The translations under genes were made by a program, and so were the position numbers. A DNA stretch of 64,000 bases from Leptolyngbya sp. SIOISBB (GTDB taxonomy: Bacteria > Cyanobacteriota > Cyanobacteriia > Phormidesmidales > Phormidesmidaceae), in contig JAAHII010000001.1 of assembly GCA_010671905.1 (NCBI GenBank), positions 2,480,001 to 2,544,000 of the forward strand, written 5' to 3'. Under the pieces are notes generated by a model, which was given only the letters and a program-made list of their open reading frames with translations, was not told the DNA's origin and did not search any database. Of this stretch, positions 6,008 to 40,920 are shown in pieces (positions within the stretch are counted from its first letter, which is position 1; each line of letters opens with the position of its first letter).

Positions 6008-7318
6008 ATGACTTACTACATCTCTCCGCGATTTCTGGATAAATTGGCTGTTCACATCACCAAAAACTACCTCAATCTAGACGGGGTCAGAGTGCCGCTA
6101 ATTTTGGGAGTGCATGGGCGTAAGGGGGAGGGCAAGACCTTTCAGTGCGAGTTGGTCTATGAGCAGATGGGGATTGAGGTTGTTCACATTTCCGGCGGAG
6201 AGTTAGAAAGTCCTGATGCTGGCGACCCGGCCCGATTAATTCGCTTACGATATCGCGAAGCAGCAGAACTGGTGCGAGTGCGCGGCGTGATGGCGGTACT
6301 GATGATCAACGATTTGGATGCAGGGGCTGGGCGGTTTGACGCCACGACTCAATACACCGTCAATACCCAGTTGGTGAATAACACACTGATGAATATCGCC
6401 GACAACCCGACGAATGTGCAACTGCCCGGCAGTTATGATGATCAGCCCATCCAGCGGGTCCCCATCATCGCGACCGGCAATGATTTTGCCACGCTGTATG
6501 AACCGCTGGTGCGCGATGGCCGTATGGAAAAGTTCTACTGGCAACCAGATCACAGCGATCGCATCGGTATCGTCCAGGGTATTTTTGCCCCCGATAACTT
6601 AGGGGCAGCAGCGATTGAGCGCTTGGTGGAGACCTTTCCGCAACAGGCGATCGATTTTTACGGTGCCTTGCGAGCGCGTATCTATGATGAGCAGGTGCGT
6701 GACTTCATCCATTCAGTCGGCATTCAGTCGGTTTCTAGTCGGGTGGTCAATTCGGACCAGCCCCTACGATTTGCCAAGCCCCAATTTTCCCTCGACCATC
6801 TGCTAGCAGTGGGACAACAAATGGTGGAAGAGCAGCGACGGTTGCAAGAGATGCGTTTAGCAGACCAATATAACCGGGTGCTGAGAGAGCGATCGCAGGC
6901 TCCGGCCGCTCCATCATCCCCCTTTTATCGGGCTTATAACAATGCGGTGATCGATCCTGCCGCGTCTAATGGTCATCGTGACTCGGATGTGGCACCATCG
7001 GTCTCGTCATCGCCCACTGCGGCGACGGCAAAGTCAATCTTGCCGCCAGAGACGGTGCGTCATGTCGAGACATTGCTGGATCAAGGCTACCGCATTGGAC
7101 TGGAACATGTGGATCAACGACGGTTCCGCACGAATGCCTGGCGGAGCTGCTCGACCATTAATACGCAAAATGTTGGTGAGGCTATGACAGCTCTAGAGCA
7201 ATGCTTGGTGAGTTTGCCTGGTGAGTACGTGCGCTTGATTGGCATTGATCCGAAAAATAAACAGCGCGTTCTAGAACAAATTATTCAACGCCCAGCAGGG
7301 GCGATCGGGGCATCTTAA
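6008..7318 (+). CDS. rca: RuBisCO activase with RbcS-like C-terminal domain
   Basis: The 436-residue protein is a cyanobacterial Rca. Its AAA+ core contains a Walker A GRKGEGKTF, a Walker B VLMINDLDAG and a downstream ATGNDFATLYEPLVRDGRMEKFYW region matching plant activases. After a low-complexity linker (Ala/Ser/Pro-rich, about residues 295-345) comes a RuBisCO small-subunit-like (SSUL) module: VRHVETLLDQGYRIGLEHVD and RRFRTNAWRSC. In this family the AAA+ ring removes inhibitory sugar phosphates from RuBisCO, and the SSUL domain tethers the enzyme to RuBisCO in carboxysomes. I chose the ATG at 6008 (MTYYISPRF) because it matches the family N-terminus; a GTG at 5981 is possible. Confidence 0.93.
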   Translation: MTYYISPRFLDKLAVHITKNYLNLDGVRVPLILGVHGRKGEGKTFQCELVYEQMGIEVVHISGGELESPDAGDPARLIRLRYREAAELVRVRGVMAVLMINDLDAGAGRFDATTQYTVNTQLVNNTLMNIADNPTNVQLPGSYDDQPIQRVPIIATGNDFATLYEPLVRDGRMEKFYWQPDHSDRIGIVQGIFAPDNLGAAAIERLVETFPQQAIDFYGALRARIYDEQVRDFIHSVGIQSVSSRVVNSDQPLRFAKPQFSLDHLLAVGQQMVEEQRRLQEMRLADQYNRVLRERSQAPAAPSSPFYRAYNNAVIDPAASNGHRDSDVAPSVSSSPTAATAKSILPPETVRHVETLLDQGYRIGLEHVDQRRFRTNAWRSCSTINTQNVGEAMTALEQCLVSLPGEYVRLIGIDPKNKQRVLEQIIQRPAGAIGAS

Positions 7319-17098: not shown

Positions 17099-17203
17099 TA
17101 TAGCAAGCCGCAGTTTGATCAGGCCGACCTGGATAATTGGAACCAGCTTCTGGCAAGCATTTCAATTCCGCATTCCGACCTCCGCATTCCGAATTCTGCT
17201 ATA
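17099..17203 (+). repeat. 105-bp dispersed MITE-like repeat, copy B
   Basis: The element starts TATAGCAAGCCGCAGTTTGA and ends ATTCTGCTATA, so its ends TATAGCA and TGCTATA are a 7-bp terminal inverted repeat. The right half repeats the motif GCATTCCG internally. Copy C at 24726 is nearly the same and copy A at 2600 is diverged. Confidence 0.9.
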
Positions 17204-24725: not shown

Positions 24726-24829
24726 TATAGCAAGCCGCAGTTTGCTCAGGTTGCCTGGATTTTTGAAATTGCCTTCCGGCATGCATTTCAATTCCGCATT
24801 CCGACCTCAGCGTTCCGCATTCTGCTATA
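24726..24829 (+). repeat. 105-bp dispersed MITE-like repeat, copy C
   Basis: Starts TATAGCAAGCCGCAGTTTGC and ends GCATTCTGCTATA, with the same 7-bp terminal inverted repeat as copy B (17099-17203) and the same orientation. It sits between the convergent psbO and phoX terminators. Confidence 0.9.
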
Positions 24830-34993: not shown

Positions 34994-35986
34994 ATGTCAT
35001 TAATCACTGTGAGGCCTGAAGGGCTCTATTGCTCTGCTGGTGACTTTTATATCGACCCGTGGCGTCCGGTCGAGAATGCGTTGATTACCCATGCCCATGC
35101 TGACCATGCGCGATCTGGCTCAGAGAGCTATGTGGCGATCGCCAGTGCTGAGGGGGTCTTACGTAAACGACTTGGGCAAGACATTGCGCTGCAAGGGATA
35201 CAGTACGGCGACAAGCTGAAATATGGCAATACTTGGGTGTCCTTTCACTCGGCAGGGCATGTGTTGGGGTCAGCGCAGGTGCGAGTCGAGCATAACGATG
35301 AAGTCTGGGTCGTGTCAGGCGATTACAAGCGCTGTGCGGATCCCACCTGTGCGCCCTTTGAGGTGGTGCCGTGTGATGTGTTTATTACGGAAGCGACCTT
35401 TGGCTTGCCTATTTACAAATGGGATACGGGTGAAGAAACGGCGCGTCAAATCTATGAGTGGTGGCAGTCCGATCGCGAGCGGCCCTCTATTCTTTTTTGC
35501 TATGCCTTTGGGAAAGCGCAGCGGGTGCTGAGCGAATTAGCCAAATTTACCGATCAGACGGTGTACGTGCATGGAGCGATCGCTGCCCTCAATGACATCT
35601 ATCGCGAGCAGGGCGTGCAGATGCTACCGACGGTCAACACCGCTGATATGCCCAAGAGCCACAAATATACTGGAGATCTAGTCCTAGCGCCCCCCTCGGG
35701 GCACCGCTCAAGCTGGATGAAGCGCTTCAAATCACCGCAAACAGCCTTTGCATCTGGATGGATGGCAGTGCGAGGGGCACGGCGACGGCGCGGTTATGAA
35801 CGAGGCTTTGTGCTCTCTGACCATGCTGACTGGTCGAGCCTGATTCGCACGGTGCAAGAAACCGGTGCCAAGCAGGTGTATGTCACCCATGGCCAAAACG
35901 ACATTCTCTCCCGCTATCTACAAGAGGTTTGTCATGTCAACGCGCAACCTCTAGAGACCTTGTTTGAAGGGGAAGGTGATATTTAG
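34994..35986 (+). CDS. Ligase-associated-type MBL DNA exonuclease
   Basis: The 330-residue protein belongs to the metallo-beta-lactamase/beta-CASP-like exonuclease group. It has the metal motif THAHADHARSG (about residues 32-42), HSAGHVLGSAQVRVE, VSGDYKRCADPTCAPFE, and the C-terminal LSDHADWSSLIRTVQETGAKQVYVTHG. Orthologues near ATP-dependent ligase genes in other bacteria are annotated as ligase-associated DNA exonucleases; no ligase gene lies near this one. The last 20 codons and the next few bases are partly repeated about 2.5 kb downstream at 38441. Confidence 0.87.
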   Translation: MSLITVRPEGLYCSAGDFYIDPWRPVENALITHAHADHARSGSESYVAIASAEGVLRKRLGQDIALQGIQYGDKLKYGNTWVSFHSAGHVLGSAQVRVEHNDEVWVVSGDYKRCADPTCAPFEVVPCDVFITEATFGLPIYKWDTGEETARQIYEWWQSDRERPSILFCYAFGKAQRVLSELAKFTDQTVYVHGAIAALNDIYREQGVQMLPTVNTADMPKSHKYTGDLVLAPPSGHRSSWMKRFKSPQTAFASGWMAVRGARRRRGYERGFVLSDHADWSSLIRTVQETGAKQVYVTHGQNDILSRYLQEVCHVNAQPLETLFEGEGDI

Positions 35987-35997
35987 AGTTTCAGTAT
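35931..35997 (+). repeat. Direct repeat: 3' end of the exonuclease gene (intact copy)
   Basis: The tail of the exonuclease gene, from GTCATGTCAACGCGCAACCT through the stop codon to TTTCAGTAT, is matched by 38441-38505 at roughly three quarters identity in the same orientation. The 2.4 kb between the two copies holds the helical-repeat gene. Confidence 0.7.
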
Positions 35998-36267
35998 GCG
36001 GGCAAGGACTGGCAGTCAGAATAGAGCCTTGAGTCGGACTCGTCTAAGTACACGACTTGGCATGTTCTAACCTCGAACTCACCAATGTGGATAGTTGGGA
36101 TGTATGGCCCACGATTCTTTCATGGCCAATTATCCAGCATGAAGTTATACCAGTTCTCCAGAATAGAGCTACAGATCGGAATTGAGAGCTATGGGGGCAA
36201 GGGGAGCAGGGGAAAGGATGTGTAGCTAGATTTTAGAGAATCGGTATTAGGCAGATTGTGCCGACCA

Positions 36268-38428
36268 TTAATAGTTGGGGGCGATGGTGAAAGCCTGCTC
36301 GGCAATTATGAGGCCCTGCTCAATTTGCCCGGCTTCAATCAGCGCGATCGCGATGTGGCTGAGAGCAGCAACTTTTTCACTTGGCGTGTCAATTTGCTCG
36401 GTTAGAGCCAAAGCCTGATCGGCTTGTCCTGACTGCGCCCAAGCGGCGGCGATCGCCCGCAATGCTATGTCTTGCGAGTATCCACTCTCTATCGTCTGAG
36501 CAATGAGCAACGCTTGATCAAATTGTTCTGCTTGAGCGACAGCAACGGCTAAAGCGGCCAGTATATCTTTGTGTCGCAACCGCAAGAACCCATGATCTAC
36601 GGATTCGAGAGACAGATCTTGCAGGATGTTCAACGCCTGGTCGTAAGCGCCAGAGGTGAGCAGACCAGCGCTGATGGAGAGTAATACTGTGGATTGAGTG
36701 TGGGCATCGCTGATTTGCTCTGCCAAGACGATCGCGATGTCGAACTGTTTGGCGGCAGCAAACGCTAGCGCAATTTCTTGTTGTGCCCAATTTGCCACCA
36801 CGGTTTCGTGAGCGATGCCTTCGAGTTCTGCTGCAGTGGCGCGTCCGGCTTCGTAGTCTCCAGAACTGATCTGGGTTTTGACAACTTCAGCCAACACAAC
36901 CGCTTTTGCTAGGGCAAGTGGCGATGTTAGCGCTGGGGCATCCGCAAAGTCTTCGCGTGAAGGGAAATACTGGAGTTGCAGAATATAGTACAGGTCTAGC
37001 CAATGCCAACTGGTTAGGGCGGTGCGATCGATCTCTAGTGAGGAGTAGCGGTCACACCTAAAAGTAGCGGAACGGCAAGCCAAACCGGTCACCCTATCCA
37101 AATTGTCGATCGCCGTCCCCGGTGCTGAGGCGTATTGTTCAATGAAAGCCCAAGCAGCCTCGGTATCGCCCGCCAGTTTCATAGCCGTTGAGATCGCGAG
37201 AAAGTTTCGCACGCGCCAGACCCCATATGCGCCCTCATCATCAGCCGCAAAGCGTTGCATCGCTTCCTCATAGGTGGCGACGGCTGGAGCAAACGCTTGT
37301 TGTTCTGCTAACTCAACGGCAGCAGCCCCCAAGATCAGGCCACGCGGGGCGGTATCAAAGGGATCTAGATGGGTTTCTAGTTGGCTTAGTAACGCCCGAT
37401 ATTGCGCTTCAGAAAAGTCTTGATAGGCCGCAAAGCCTAGCCATATCGGGGTCAATCCCCCCAAAAACCAGCCTTCTGAGCGTGGGAGGACATCCATGAG
37501 CACTTGGTGGACGGCGTCGCTGCCTGCAGTTGCCTGGGTGCTTTGCAGTAGAGGTACGAAGAAGACGGACTTCAAAATAGGCAGGTCCCGTCTCGCCTGC
37601 TCAGCCTCGGGTTGCAGCGACTCTAATATCTGGCGAGACTGATCGACGGCACCAATTTCCGCTAGGCCCAGGATGACAGCCCCGACGGCTTCAATTTCGT
37701 CAGGCTCCTGGGCTTGGTTGAACCCTTGCTGGGCTAACAATATCGCCTGCTGAAATAGACGATCAGCCCGCTCAGACTGTTGTTGTTCCGCTAGAGCAAC
37801 CCCGGCACAGGAGAGCGCCGCAATTCGATACAAGGGCGTCTCCATCAATTCGATCAGGGCGATCGCTTGCTCAACCTCATTGGTTTGAATGAAATGAGTG
37901 ACCAGGTGAGCTATCGCTTCGCCTCGATGGTTTTCTTCTTCGATCAACATCGCCGCTGCCACGGCCGCCTTGCCCTCTCCCCGCCGCAGTCAGGGCAAAT
38001 ACCACGGGGAACGCCGCATTGTCCTGATAGCGATCGCCAATGACATCTTCACCTTCGATTCGCTGCAGCAACTCCAGAGTTGCATCCGGATAGCCATTCG
38101 CAGCCAACGCTAGAGCAACACTACGAGCCTGATCGAAATGTTGATAGCTGCCGGATGTAAAGCGCTCAACAATGTCTAACGCGAGTTGCGGCTGTCCTTG
38201 TTCGACCAAAGCGATCACCACATTATTGGGAAAATCGGTCTCACGAATACCAGCGGTGGACGAGTTAGTCTCGCGCATCTGACGGGAAAAGCAAATGCGA
38301 TCAATGCCTTCAAGGCGGATGAACGGGCGATCGTCACGGTAATCAAGATGGTGAGCCTGGGCAGGTTGGCAAAATGCGACCACCGCAGTGATGACAAAGC
38401 TAACAAGAGAAAGCGGCGATCGCGTCAT
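36268..38428 (-). CDS. Secreted alpha-helical (TPR-like) repeat protein, frameshifted
   Basis: Two minus-strand frames form one protein of about 720 residues. The first begins at an ATG near 38428 with a signal peptide (MTRSPLSLVSFVITAVVAF, cleavage after QPAQA) and breaks near 37970. The second continues AAVAAAMLIEEENHRGEAIAHL to the end. The body is a series of degenerate 33-36 residue units of the type ALLIAQTIESGYSQDIALRA, with the recurring core AxAxAxAGQxDQALxLAEQI. These resemble TPR/SEL-type superhelices that bind proteins. A G-run near 37980 is one base too long for a continuous frame. I know of no specific function. Export to the periplasm or outside is inferred from the signal. Confidence 0.7.
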
Positions 38429-38440
38429 GCCCGTACTTGT

Positions 38441-38505
38441 GTCATCAATGCCCAACCTCTAGAACCTGATTTGAAGGAGGAGGTGATCTTTAGACTCTCA
38501 GCTAT
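38441..38505 (+). pseudogene. Relic of an exonuclease-gene 3' end
   Basis: This short stretch encodes RTCVINAQPLE, matching EVCHVNAQPLE at the C-terminus of the exonuclease at 34994-35986. It then loses one base, so the match to the remaining nucleotides continues in another frame past the old stop. It lies just upstream of the helical-repeat gene on the opposite strand and appears to be a leftover from a duplication. Confidence 0.6.
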
Positions 38506-38525: not shown

Positions 38526-39023
38526 TTAATTGGGTTTGACCCGCATGAGGGTTTGGCCAAATTCTACGGGTTGAGCGTTATCAACCAGAATTTCAACGAC
38601 TTCTCCAGAGACTTCGGCTTCCAATTCATTCATTAGCTTCATCGCTTCGATGATGCAAACAGTTTGTCCCGTTTGAATGCGATCGCCAATATCCACAAAT
38701 GAAGGCTCCTCAGGCGCGGGGGAGCGATAAAAGGTACCAACCATTGGGGAAGTGATTTCGAGTAGATTGGAGTCGACTGAAGGGGGTGGCGTGGGAGCCG
38801 GGGCCGGTGGTGTAGAACTCACAGGCTGTACCACTGGTACTGCTGGGGCCGTCACCGACTGTTCTGGGGGCGCGACCGCGATCACAGAGGCAGCAGCCGA
38901 GGCGATCGCCCCCTGCTTCCGGAGAGTGAGTTCAAAATCAGCCCCCTTGAGGGTAAGTTCCGAAATATCGGTCTGGCCGAGCGTCGTCACCAGTTCCCGC
39001 AGTTCATTGAAATTCAGTTCCAC
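38526..39023 (-). CDS. accB: Biotin carboxyl carrier protein of acetyl-CoA carboxylase
   Basis: AccB carries the biotin shuttled between biotin carboxylase and carboxyltransferase in the first step of fatty-acid synthesis. The protein starts with VELNFNELRELVTTLGQ, continues with a Pro/Ala-rich linker (about residues 45-85), and ends in a biotinyl domain with the biotinylated lysine in CIIEAMKLMNELE. Two GTG codons could start it: 39032 and 39023. The second is preceded by GGGAG at a spacing of 8 and matches the family N-terminus, so I use it (165 residues). It lies just downstream of efp, the usual cyanobacterial pair. Confidence 0.95.
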   Translation of the reverse strand: MELNFNELRELVTTLGQTDISELTLKGADFELTLRKQGAIASAAASVIAVAPPEQSVTAPAVPVVQPVSSTPPAPAPTPPPSVDSNLLEITSPMVGTFYRSPAPEEPSFVDIGDRIQTGQTVCIIEAMKLMNELEAEVSGEVVEILVDNAQPVEFGQTLMRVKPN

Positions 39024-39088
39024 TAATCGCACTCCCTACCAACAGCGTGAAGTCGCCCCGAGTCTAATAGTCACCCGAGAATTTAAGG

Positions 39089-39789: not shown

Positions 39790-40920
39790 ATGCATTTATT
39801 CAACCGATGGCTCATGTGCCTGGTCCTGAGTGGCCTGTTCTGGGGAGGGTGCCTCACCGGAGAAGCCTTGCTGGGAGCTAGTCCCAATGCCCAAGCCGCG
39901 CCCTTGTCTTCTACGTTGGTGGCCTACTTGCCACCGGGCAATGCCGTGACCGATGGTCGCGCGTTGCTGCGTTACTCACTACCGATTGACAACAAAGATA
40001 TTCGGACTGTCCAAAAAGATTTAGAAGGTTTGTCAGAGTGGCTGCGCAGCAAGCGCTGGGGGCCGGTCATTCGTGATGCGAATAAATTGAGTAAGCTGCT
40101 AGGTCGCCGCCGTGATGCCATCTTGGCGGATGTGCCGCCAGCCAGTCAGGCACTGGCCGCTGAGTACTTAGATGATATTCGGACTGGCATGGATGTCATC
40201 GTTGAAGGAGCCAAGGCCAAAAGTCGGGAGATGGTTTGGACTGAACGCGGTGCGCTGTTGGAAAAAGTGGGCGCAATTGAGGAAATGATGGTCACTGAGT
40301 TTCCGTTTGATGTGCCAGCTGAATATAGCAACCTGCCTCAGCTCAAGGGTCGTGCCACGGTTGAGTTTGAAACCAACAAAGGGACGATGACGGCGGTGAT
40401 TGATGGCTATTCGACCCCAGTTACGGGTGGCAACTTTGTCGACTTGGTGCAGCGGGGTTTTTATGACGATATGCCCTTTACGCGGGCAGAAGATAACTAC
40501 GTCCTGCAAACGGGTGATCCAGCTGGCCCAGAGAATGGGTTCATTGACCCAGCAACGGGAGAATATCGTGCGGTACCGTTGGAAATCTTGGTCAAAGGTG
40601 ATGAAGCCCCTACCTATGGCGCCACTTTAGAGGAACTGGGGCGATATTTAGAAGATCCAGTGCTGCCATTCTCAGCCTTTGGGGTGATGGGCTTTGCGCG
40701 ACCTTCAGTCGATGTAAATGGGGGGTCCTCACAATTCTTCTTTTTCTTGTTTGAACCAGAAATGACCCCCGCTGGTCTGAACTTGTTGGATGGCCGCTTT
40801 GCCGTATTTGGCTGCGTAGTGGAAAACAAGGAAGTACTGGAACAACTCAAACAGGGCGATCGCATCATCTCTGCCAAAGTGATCGATGGGCTGGAGAATC
40901 TAGTACAACCGACGACTTAA
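39790..40920 (+). CDS. Lumenal cyclophilin-type peptidyl-prolyl isomerase (CYP38/TLP40-like)
   Basis: From the ATG at 39790 the protein has 376 residues: a signal peptide (hydrophobic LMCLVLSGLFWGGCLTGEALLG, cleavage near NAQAAP), an N-terminal four-helix domain (about 50-180, RTVQKDLEGLSEWLRSKRWG), and a C-terminal cyclophilin domain (VEFETNKGTMTAVIDGY, TGGNFVDLVQRGFYDDMPFTR, FGVMGFARP). This architecture is that of plant CYP38/TLP40 and Synechocystis sll0408, needed for photosystem II assembly and repair. The catalytic Arg of classical cyclophilins is not clearly preserved, as in CYP38, so isomerase activity may be weak. thiL follows after 12 bp and is probably co-transcribed. Confidence 0.92.
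   Translation: MHLFNRWLMCLVLSGLFWGGCLTGEALLGASPNAQAAPLSSTLVAYLPPGNAVTDGRALLRYSLPIDNKDIRTVQKDLEGLSEWLRSKRWGPVIRDANKLSKLLGRRRDAILADVPPASQALAAEYLDDIRTGMDVIVEGAKAKSREMVWTERGALLEKVGAIEEMMVTEFPFDVPAEYSNLPQLKGRATVEFETNKGTMTAVIDGYSTPVTGGNFVDLVQRGFYDDMPFTRAEDNYVLQTGDPAGPENGFIDPATGEYRAVPLEILVKGDEAPTYGATLEELGRYLEDPVLPFSAFGVMGFARPSVDVNGGSSQFFFFLFEPEMTPAGLNLLDGRFAVFGCVVENKEVLEQLKQGDRIISAKVIDGLENLVQPTT

What the first reader, a model, noticed from the sequence alone, without database searches (positions are those of the whole stretch)
35931..38505. Duplicated exonuclease tail flanks the helical-repeat gene
The last codons and following bases of the exonuclease gene (35931-35997) reappear in degraded form at 38441-38505, including the peptide VNAQPLE/INAQPLE. 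The 2.4 kb between them holds a single large secreted repeat protein. This is the footprint expected of insertion by duplication, or of a tandem gene copy replaced by new DNA.
Basis: seen in the sequence. Interest (0 to 1): 0.55.

Follow-up and report, generated by a model that had tools for sequence, protein, structure and literature searches.

The report
Gene-tail scar beside inserted gene
A cyanobacterium gained a gene between two neighbouring genes, and a worn-out piece of one neighbour's end was left behind; similar leftovers occur at several other genes, so they may mark places where new genes were added.

Summary
The repeat is real: the exonuclease gene's last 57 coding bases and 11 bases beyond its stop (35930-35997) recur, decayed, at 38440-38505 (score 77; 500 shuffles reach at most 33). 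G001, G005 and G012 have exo and accB side by side without the 2.4 kb: a lineage-specific insertion holding one frameshifted helical-repeat gene and a MITE-like repeat.

The footprint recurs. G002 and G003 have accB, an aminotransferase gene, then a decayed accB tail. Scans of G000 (1.26 Mb), G001 and G012 (0.4 Mb each) kept 12 downstream tail copies, 2 upstream and no head copies; 3 of the 12 are tandem copies or an artefact. At hisB (G000), moxR and SNF2 (G001) the tails differ mostly at third codon positions, which simulated duplication with decay reaches in 0-3 of 2000 runs: both tails had belonged to working genes.

Best reading: one-sided recombination joined new DNA at a gene's end and stranded the resident gene's tail. 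For exo itself the scar is too short to exclude local duplication with decay. New variant of a known kind (homology-facilitated illegitimate recombination).

The parts
34994..35986 (+). intact exonuclease gene (ligase-associated DNA damage response exonuclease, TIGR04122)
   Evidence: NCBIfam 486.6 bits, cut-off 325
35930..35997 (+). tail copy 1: last 57 coding bases plus 11 bases after the stop
36146..36249 (.). dispersed MITE-like repeat with imperfect inverted ends; 29 other matches in the genome
   Evidence: boundaries and inverted ends read by eye
36268..37990 (-). C-terminal part of the inserted helical-repeat gene (ORF call 36268-37962; 564 aa)
37877..38428 (-). N-terminal part of the same gene (183 aa from ATG at 38428; signal-peptide-like start read by eye), in another frame because of a one-base shift
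38429..38437 (.). approximate junction between inserted DNA and the exonuclease remnant, within about 10 bases of the repeat gene's start codon
38438..38505 (+). scar (tail copy 2): decayed 3' end of an exonuclease gene, with gaps that break its frame
38526..39032 (-). accB (biotin carboxyl carrier protein), the neighbour of exo in relatives that lack the insert
   Evidence: TIGR00531

Best explanation
The stretch at 38438-38505 is a scar: the stranded 3' end of the exonuclease gene that used to end beside accB. DNA carrying the repeat gene was joined into the exo-accB gap by one-sided recombination. Incoming DNA (an exonuclease 3' part followed by new DNA) paired with the resident exonuclease and was exchanged there; its far end was joined without homology inside the resident gene's 3' part. 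One full exonuclease results, followed by the new DNA and then the resident's leftover tail next to accB. Shown: the repeat, its end at stop +11, the empty site in three relatives, the lineage-specific insert, and like anatomy at accB (G002/G003), hisB (G000), moxR and SNF2 (G001). Inferred: that the incoming DNA carried exo sequence, the order of events, and transfer between cells.
For: Empty sites. Mirror case accB - aminotransferase - accB tail in G003 and G002. hisB: 4.9 kb insert, hisB and exbD about 0.23 kb apart in G003, no hisB tail copy in the gaps of G001, G003 or G005. Third-codon share of differences against simulated duplication plus decay: hisB 36 of 47 (0 of 2000 runs reach it), moxR 9 of 10 (3 of 2000), SNF2 14 of 19 (1 of 2000), accB of G002 23 of 39 (5 of 2000), 3299583 9 of 14 (39 of 2000). 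Homology ends between -13 and +11 of the stop in exo, hisB, moxR, SNF2, accB and 3299583. Donor-like order for moxR: G000 has moxR next to a relative of the same new gene and no tail copy. Exo tree groups G000 with G003 (91/92) against five joined neighbour genes, which group it with G001+G005 (100/100).
Against: For exo the codon test is silent (4 of 7; 471 of 2000 runs reach it). The exo tree conflict is not significant (AU p 0.10) and G003's exo is itself out of place. The scar scores best with its own exo tail (68; next G001, 57), and where the two copies differ six of seven relatives side more often with copy 1. The hisB tail data reject none of five topologies. No genome with exo beside the repeat gene was found (20 neighbourhoods), nor accB beside this aminotransferase in listed matches outside G002/G003 (the second list is cut). 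pfkB ends at +80 and does not reject decay; nor do accB of G003 and uma2; groEL is reached by 77 of 2000. A tandem paralogue with an open frame (2318999) also shows third-position excess (39 of 49) and an end near the stop (-13), so these signs alone do not prove transfer.
Confidence: 0.5

Rival explanations
1. Local duplication at insertion: a break in the exonuclease tail was repaired by joining new DNA between two sister copies (or a tandem duplication was followed by loss), so the tail was doubled within one genome and the outer copy has decayed since.
For: The scar scores best with its own exo tail (68 against 57 for the next). Decay is not rejected for exo, pfkB, uma2 or accB of G003. 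One pair in the scan (2644482) is plainly a tandem duplication of a neighbouring gene plus a tail.
Against: hisB, moxR and SNF2 remnants carry third-position differences that 0-3 of 2000 simulated decays reach. In most cases the alignment ends near the stop codon, which a copy made within one genome has no reason to do, although decay beyond the stop could also shorten alignments.
Confidence: 0.32
2. An old functional tandem copy (paralogue) of each gene was truncated by later insertions or deletions, without transfer.
For: It would also give third-position differences; the tandem paralogue 2318999, whose frame is still open, does (39 of 49).
Against: exo has one listed match in each of the 49 genomes with a hit, and accB one in most. 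No second full exo, accB or hisB was seen in the stretches of relatives examined.
Confidence: 0.12
3. Site-specific integration of an island into the 3' end of exo by an integrase, with the repeats as attL and attR.
For: An intact gene at one end and a displaced tail at the other is the classical anatomy (recalled); SGI1 islands at the 3' end of trmE are one example (PMC8409611, search listing only).
Against: The only gene called in the 2.4 kb is the repeat gene, without recombinase matches. I saw none in the frames of the pfkB, hisB, moxR and SNF2 inserts (by eye). A different target gene each time does not suit one integrase.
Confidence: 0.05
4. Chance similarity.
For: The stretch is short.
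Against: Score 77 against a shuffle maximum of 33 in 500, and in register with the gene's end.
Confidence: 0.01

Closest known systems
Homology-facilitated illegitimate recombination (de Vries and Wackernagel 2002; Prudhomme 2002; Meier and Wackernagel 2003; seen only as references in passages of PMC5361080 and PMC2884548)
   Same: One end of incoming DNA anchored by homology, the other end joined without homology; gains non-homologous genes.
   Different: Described in transformation experiments. Here it is inferred from remnants at housekeeping genes in a cyanobacterial genus, with the resident gene's tail kept.
Sequential displacement of T6SS effector genes in Vibrio (PMC5361080, passages read) and Rhs C-terminal displacement (named there)
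   Same: New DNA anchored in a conserved gene pushes the old 3' end downstream, where it remains as an orphan.
   Different: There the displaced ends are variable effector ends and kept immunity genes. Here they are ordinary conserved gene ends that decay.
Small variable segments of bacterial genomes (PMC2884548, passages read)
   Same: The authors attribute much small-scale diversity to illegitimate recombination, possibly assisted by homology.
   Different: No gene-tail scars or codon test in the passages seen.
Merodiploid formation by transformation (PMC3784515, abstract and outline read)
   Same: Uptake of DNA partly repeated in the chromosome produces duplications.
   Different: Tandem duplications of about 100-900 kb, not gene-tail scars.

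Membership tests
homology-facilitated illegitimate recombination product | non-homologous DNA gained relative to an empty site | tested here: met
   G001, G005, G012 have exo and accB adjacent without the insert
homology-facilitated illegitimate recombination product | homology tract on one side only | tested here: inconclusive
   shared stretch lies in the exo tail and ends at stop +11; the donor is unknown, so the tract in the incoming DNA is inferred
homology-facilitated illegitimate recombination product | foreign origin of the anchor stretch | tested here: inconclusive
   exo tree groups G000 with G003 (91/92) against the neighbour tree, AU p 0.10
homology-facilitated illegitimate recombination product | illegitimate junction, often with a few bases of microhomology (recalled) | not testable with these tools
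   needs the donor sequence
transposon insertion with target-site duplication | transposase or terminal inverted repeats at the insert's ends and a short fixed duplication | tested here: not met
   the duplication covers 66-68 bases; the only inverted-end element seen is internal, at 36146-36249
integrase-made genomic island at a gene's 3' end | tyrosine or serine recombinase in the element | tested here: not met
   the repeat gene is the only gene called in the 2.4 kb and has no recombinase match
Rhs/T6SS C-terminal displacement | polymorphic toxin with constant N-terminal and variable C-terminal part | tested here: not met
   exo is a TIGR04122 exonuclease matched over residues 3-327 of 330 and its last codons are alike in relatives

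The most novel reading that the evidence does not exclude
Tail scars are a general, readable record of gene gain by one-sided recombination at housekeeping genes: each scar keeps the resident allele's 3' end, so the insertion point, the direction of joining, the relative age and the donor-recipient divergence can be read from single genomes, and gains are biased to gene 3' ends. In this cyanobacterial genus they may account for a sizeable part of single-gene gains.
Probability: 0.3. Interest if true: 0.68.

Novelty: new variant of a known kind. Interest (0 to 1): 0.48.

Why it matters
How single genes enter bacterial chromosomes without mobile elements is mostly inferred from presence and absence. 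A scar that keeps the displaced end of the resident gene would make such events datable and directional, and would show that core genes serve as landing anchors. It can be tested on any set of genomes with a scan for downstream tail remnants and a codon-position test.

Tried and rejected
An exonuclease profile found no further convincing remnant in the gap; the only other match was weak (E 6.1, 38160-38206), so a longer tandem exonuclease copy is not visible. Tail copies were sought and not found in the G004 exo-accB insert, downstream of hisB in G001, G003, G004, G005 and G012 (G004 without shuffles), or downstream of pfkB and moxR in relatives. In the rest of the G003 interval three of four tests were negative and one was marginal (33 against a shuffle maximum of 32). 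Downstream of SNF2, G012 was negative and G005 marginal (39 against 34). Rfam gave one sub-threshold lncRNA match at 40013-40069, taken as chance. The fold of the repeat protein's C-part was weak (mean pLDDT 58, all-helical), so no fold search was made. PDB and family searches gave only weak TPR-like or unrelated matches.

A test of third-position excess against one third was too easy, because an intact copy under selection already adds third-position changes. I replaced it with simulations of duplication plus decay (omega 0.05 for the intact copy, chosen by me); exo, pfkB, accB of G003 and uma2 then no longer reject decay. Tree tests for exo and hisB are inconclusive. Empty sites for pfkB, moxR and SNF2 were not resolved.

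The 80 exonuclease loci from named genomes (1.52 Mb, mostly other bacteria) gave 7 tail-down, 1 tail-up, 0 head-up and 2 head-down on the same strand, 2 head on the opposite strand and 17 internal. 6 of the 7 are in Pseudomonas loci, most with nearly the same span, so they are not independent.

Rows dropped before counts: queries with more than two overlapping hits, hits inside a same-strand ORF of 90 codons or more, and hits with under 30 coding bases. One search lists the dropped tail/head rows for G000 only (12 rows: 7 tail-down, 3 tail-up, 2 head-up); most are paralogues by blastp, and one head-up row (3272275, 134 bases at 69%) is not an evident paralogue. G001 and G012 were not checked in that way. 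Rows other than tail or head: 10 for G000, 1 for G001.

Of the 12 kept tail-down rows (9 G000, 3 G001), 2693697 is a false frame opposite a BMC shell-protein pair, 2318999 is a tandem paralogue with an open frame and 2644482 belongs to a tandem duplication. 3249389 is weak, uma2 belongs to a family that I recall as multi-copy, and groEL has only 126 bases between the copies. exo, pfkB, hisB, 3299583, moxR and SNF2 remain as the clearer ones. Change on re-checking: because of these rows I lowered the best explanation from 0.55 to 0.5 and the novel case from 0.35 to 0.3.

Names backed by Pfam: hisB, pfkB, moxR (AAA_3), SNF2, exbD, groEL, Uma2, the Crp-like regulator 3299583 and the aminotransferase; 'hisC' is my finer reading. 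DUF58, PEP-CTERM, acyltransferase, hydrolase and CAAX-protease labels are by eye (recalled).

Full report
WHAT IS THERE. The end of the exonuclease gene (34994-35986, TIGR04122, 486.6 bits, cut-off 325) recurs downstream. The best local alignment is 35930-35997 against 38440-38505, three gaps, score 77; 500 shuffles reach at most 33, and stretches sampled elsewhere in the window at most 36. A profile from 21 exonuclease genes finds 38438-38492 as the gene's 3' end (E 0.0022). Similarity ends 11 bases after the stop; the next 40 bases match at 11 of 40. The gaps break the frame, so the second copy is a remnant.

Between the copies lie a MITE-like repeat of about 104 bases (36146-36249; 29 other matches in the genome; inverted ends seen by eye) and one gene on the minus strand. 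It runs from ATG at 38428 to 36268 and is broken by a one-base shift near 37975-37990 into 183 and 564 codons. Its C-part is all-helical in a weak model (pLDDT 58), with weak TPR-like matches. Its start codon lies about ten bases from the remnant, and it is co-directional with efp and accB.

EMPTY SITES. 49 of 95 genomes (own included) have an exonuclease match, one each; the match in G034 is a fragment. I fetched 20 neighbourhoods. In G001 and G005 (same genus) and G012 (same family) exo and accB are convergent neighbours within about 100 bases; in G004 772 bases of other DNA lie between them. The other 16 stretches show no accB (G003's lies outside the stretch fetched; several contigs are short). 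The repeat gene has no hit in the 20 stretches, and its C-part only partial matches of 23-47% identity in 25 other genomes of the 95. The insert is thus lineage-specific in this sample. The G004 insert carries no tail copy (scores 19-22, shuffle maxima 31-34), so an insert at this spot need not create the repeat.

THE SAME FOOTPRINT ELSEWHERE. In G003 and G002 intact accB is followed by an aminotransferase gene and then by a decayed accB tail (G003 C115 8222-8440). The G003 remnant is 82% identical to its own accB and 71-79% to the other six compared. I then scanned 1.264 Mb of contiguous own chromosome (906 ORFs of at least 120 codons), 0.4 Mb of G001 (320 ORFs) and 0.4 Mb of G012 (300 ORFs) for partial copies within 20 kb. 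With at least 30 coding bases, tail copies downstream on the same strand number 9, 3 and 0; tail copies upstream 1, 0 and 1; head copies 0.

Three of the 12 are not scars: a false frame opposite a BMC shell-protein pair (2693697), a tandem paralogue with an open frame (2318999) and part of a tandem duplication (2644482). One possible head copy had been filtered out in G000. The excess of tails over heads is therefore suggestive, not established.

The clearest cases are these. hisB at 3344376-3345014 has its remnant 4.9 kb downstream behind acyltransferase-like frames; in G003 hisB and exbD are about 0.23 kb apart, and in G001 and G005 another small frame sits there without a tail copy. pfkB at 2231203 has a remnant 3.4 kb away behind hydrolase-like frames. 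A Crp-like regulator at 3299583 has one 1.7 kb away. In G001, moxR at 577864 and SNF2 at 771330 have remnants 1.7 and 1.9 kb downstream.

TWO WORKING GENES, NOT ONE DOUBLED. If a tail is doubled and one copy decays, third codon positions should hold about 0.42-0.46 of the differences (simulation). Observed: hisB 36 of 47 (0 of 2000 runs reach it), moxR 9 of 10 (3), SNF2 14 of 19 (1), accB of G002 23 of 39 (5), 3299583 9 of 14 (39). Weaker or silent: groEL 17 of 30 (77), uma2 19 of 35 (176), accB of G003 14 of 26 (234), pfkB 30 of 63 (344), exo 4 of 7 (471). The open tandem paralogue 2318999 gives 39 of 49 (0), so the sign marks a formerly working copy and does not by itself tell transfer from paralogy. 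The hisB tails differ at third positions (36 of 103) about as tails of different species do (40-52 of 110).

Alignments end near the stop codon in exo (+11), hisB (-11), moxR (-4), SNF2 (+8), accB (-13 and +1), 3299583 (-7), groEL (+4) and uma2 (+7); pfkB reaches +80, 3249389 +16. This fits two genomes that share the coding part but not the flank, though decay can also shorten alignments. For moxR a donor-like order exists: G000 has moxR followed by a relative of the same new gene (65% identity) and no tail copy in the 1.5 kb after it. The spacer is homologous (78 of 106). G004 and G005 have no match to the new gene; G003 and G012 have weak partial ones.

PHYLOGENY. Five joined neighbour genes place G000 with G001+G005 (100/100), but exo places G000 with G003 (91/92). 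The AU test does not exclude the neighbour topology for exo (p 0.10), and the hisB tail data reject none of five topologies. At the 11 sites where the exo tails differ, G001 sides with the scar at 4, G005 at 2 and G003 at 1; too few to decide. G003's exonuclease lies about 16 kb from accB (14 kb from the accB remnant) and on another contig than the DUF2854 gene, so either lineage could have received it.

MECHANISM. Most likely, incoming DNA carrying a gene's 3' part plus new DNA recombined with the resident gene, while its other end was joined without homology inside the resident gene's 3' part. The result is an intact gene, the new DNA, and the resident's stranded tail. Shown: repeat, empty site, recurrence, codon pattern in several other cases. 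Inferred: transfer between cells, donor, and application to exo. A bias to tails, if real, may be selective, since a stranded head keeps promoter and start codon; this is conjecture.

KNOWN COUNTERPARTS. Homology-facilitated illegitimate recombination is described for three transformable species (as cited in PMC2884548, passages). Displacement of effector genes in Vibrio T6SS clusters was explained in the same way, with an old 3' end shifted back (PMC5361080, passages). I ran seven literature searches. No title or abstract start listed there describes decayed tails of housekeeping genes as scars of gene gain; this is limited to that open-access library, those terms and the listed rows.

VERDICT. 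The single case is modest; the recurring, codon-tested footprint is the interesting part.

Noticed in passing
36146-36249: Dispersed ~104-base repeat with imperfect inverted ends (TATACCAGTTCTC...GAGAATCGGTATTA), 29 other matches in the genome, up to 90% identical; looks like a MITE.
   Followed up: partly
37975-37990: One-base frameshift in a G-rich run splits the inserted repeat gene; it may be a decaying passenger or a sequencing error.
   Followed up: no
L187 5824-9214 (G003) and L189 144-3445 (G002): accB - aminotransferase - decayed accB tail - ~245-aa membrane-protein-like frame: another insertion with tail scar in the same gap in sister species.
   Followed up: yes
L071 (G004), between accB (6726-7229) and exo (8990-8001): A different 0.77 kb insert (CAAX-protease-like by eye) in the same gap, without tail copy; the gap seems to accept genes repeatedly.
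   Followed up: partly
L271 (G000 C1 2693079-2694107): Two BMC shell-protein frames in tandem; they gave a false tail hit through an ORF on the opposite strand.
   Followed up: yes
17128-17203 and 24754-24829: Direct repeat of 76 bases, 84% identical, 7.6 kb apart in the window; not examined.
   Followed up: no
L120, L128, L136, L149, L157: Pseudomonas loci share a 50-80 base tail copy about 1.3-6 kb downstream of a gene, most with nearly the same span.
   Followed up: no
G000 C1 3252413-3252546 and 3272275-3273744: A possible head remnant (134 bases, 69%) lies upstream of a 489-codon gene, with a 6430-codon ORF between: the only candidate head scar.
   Followed up: no
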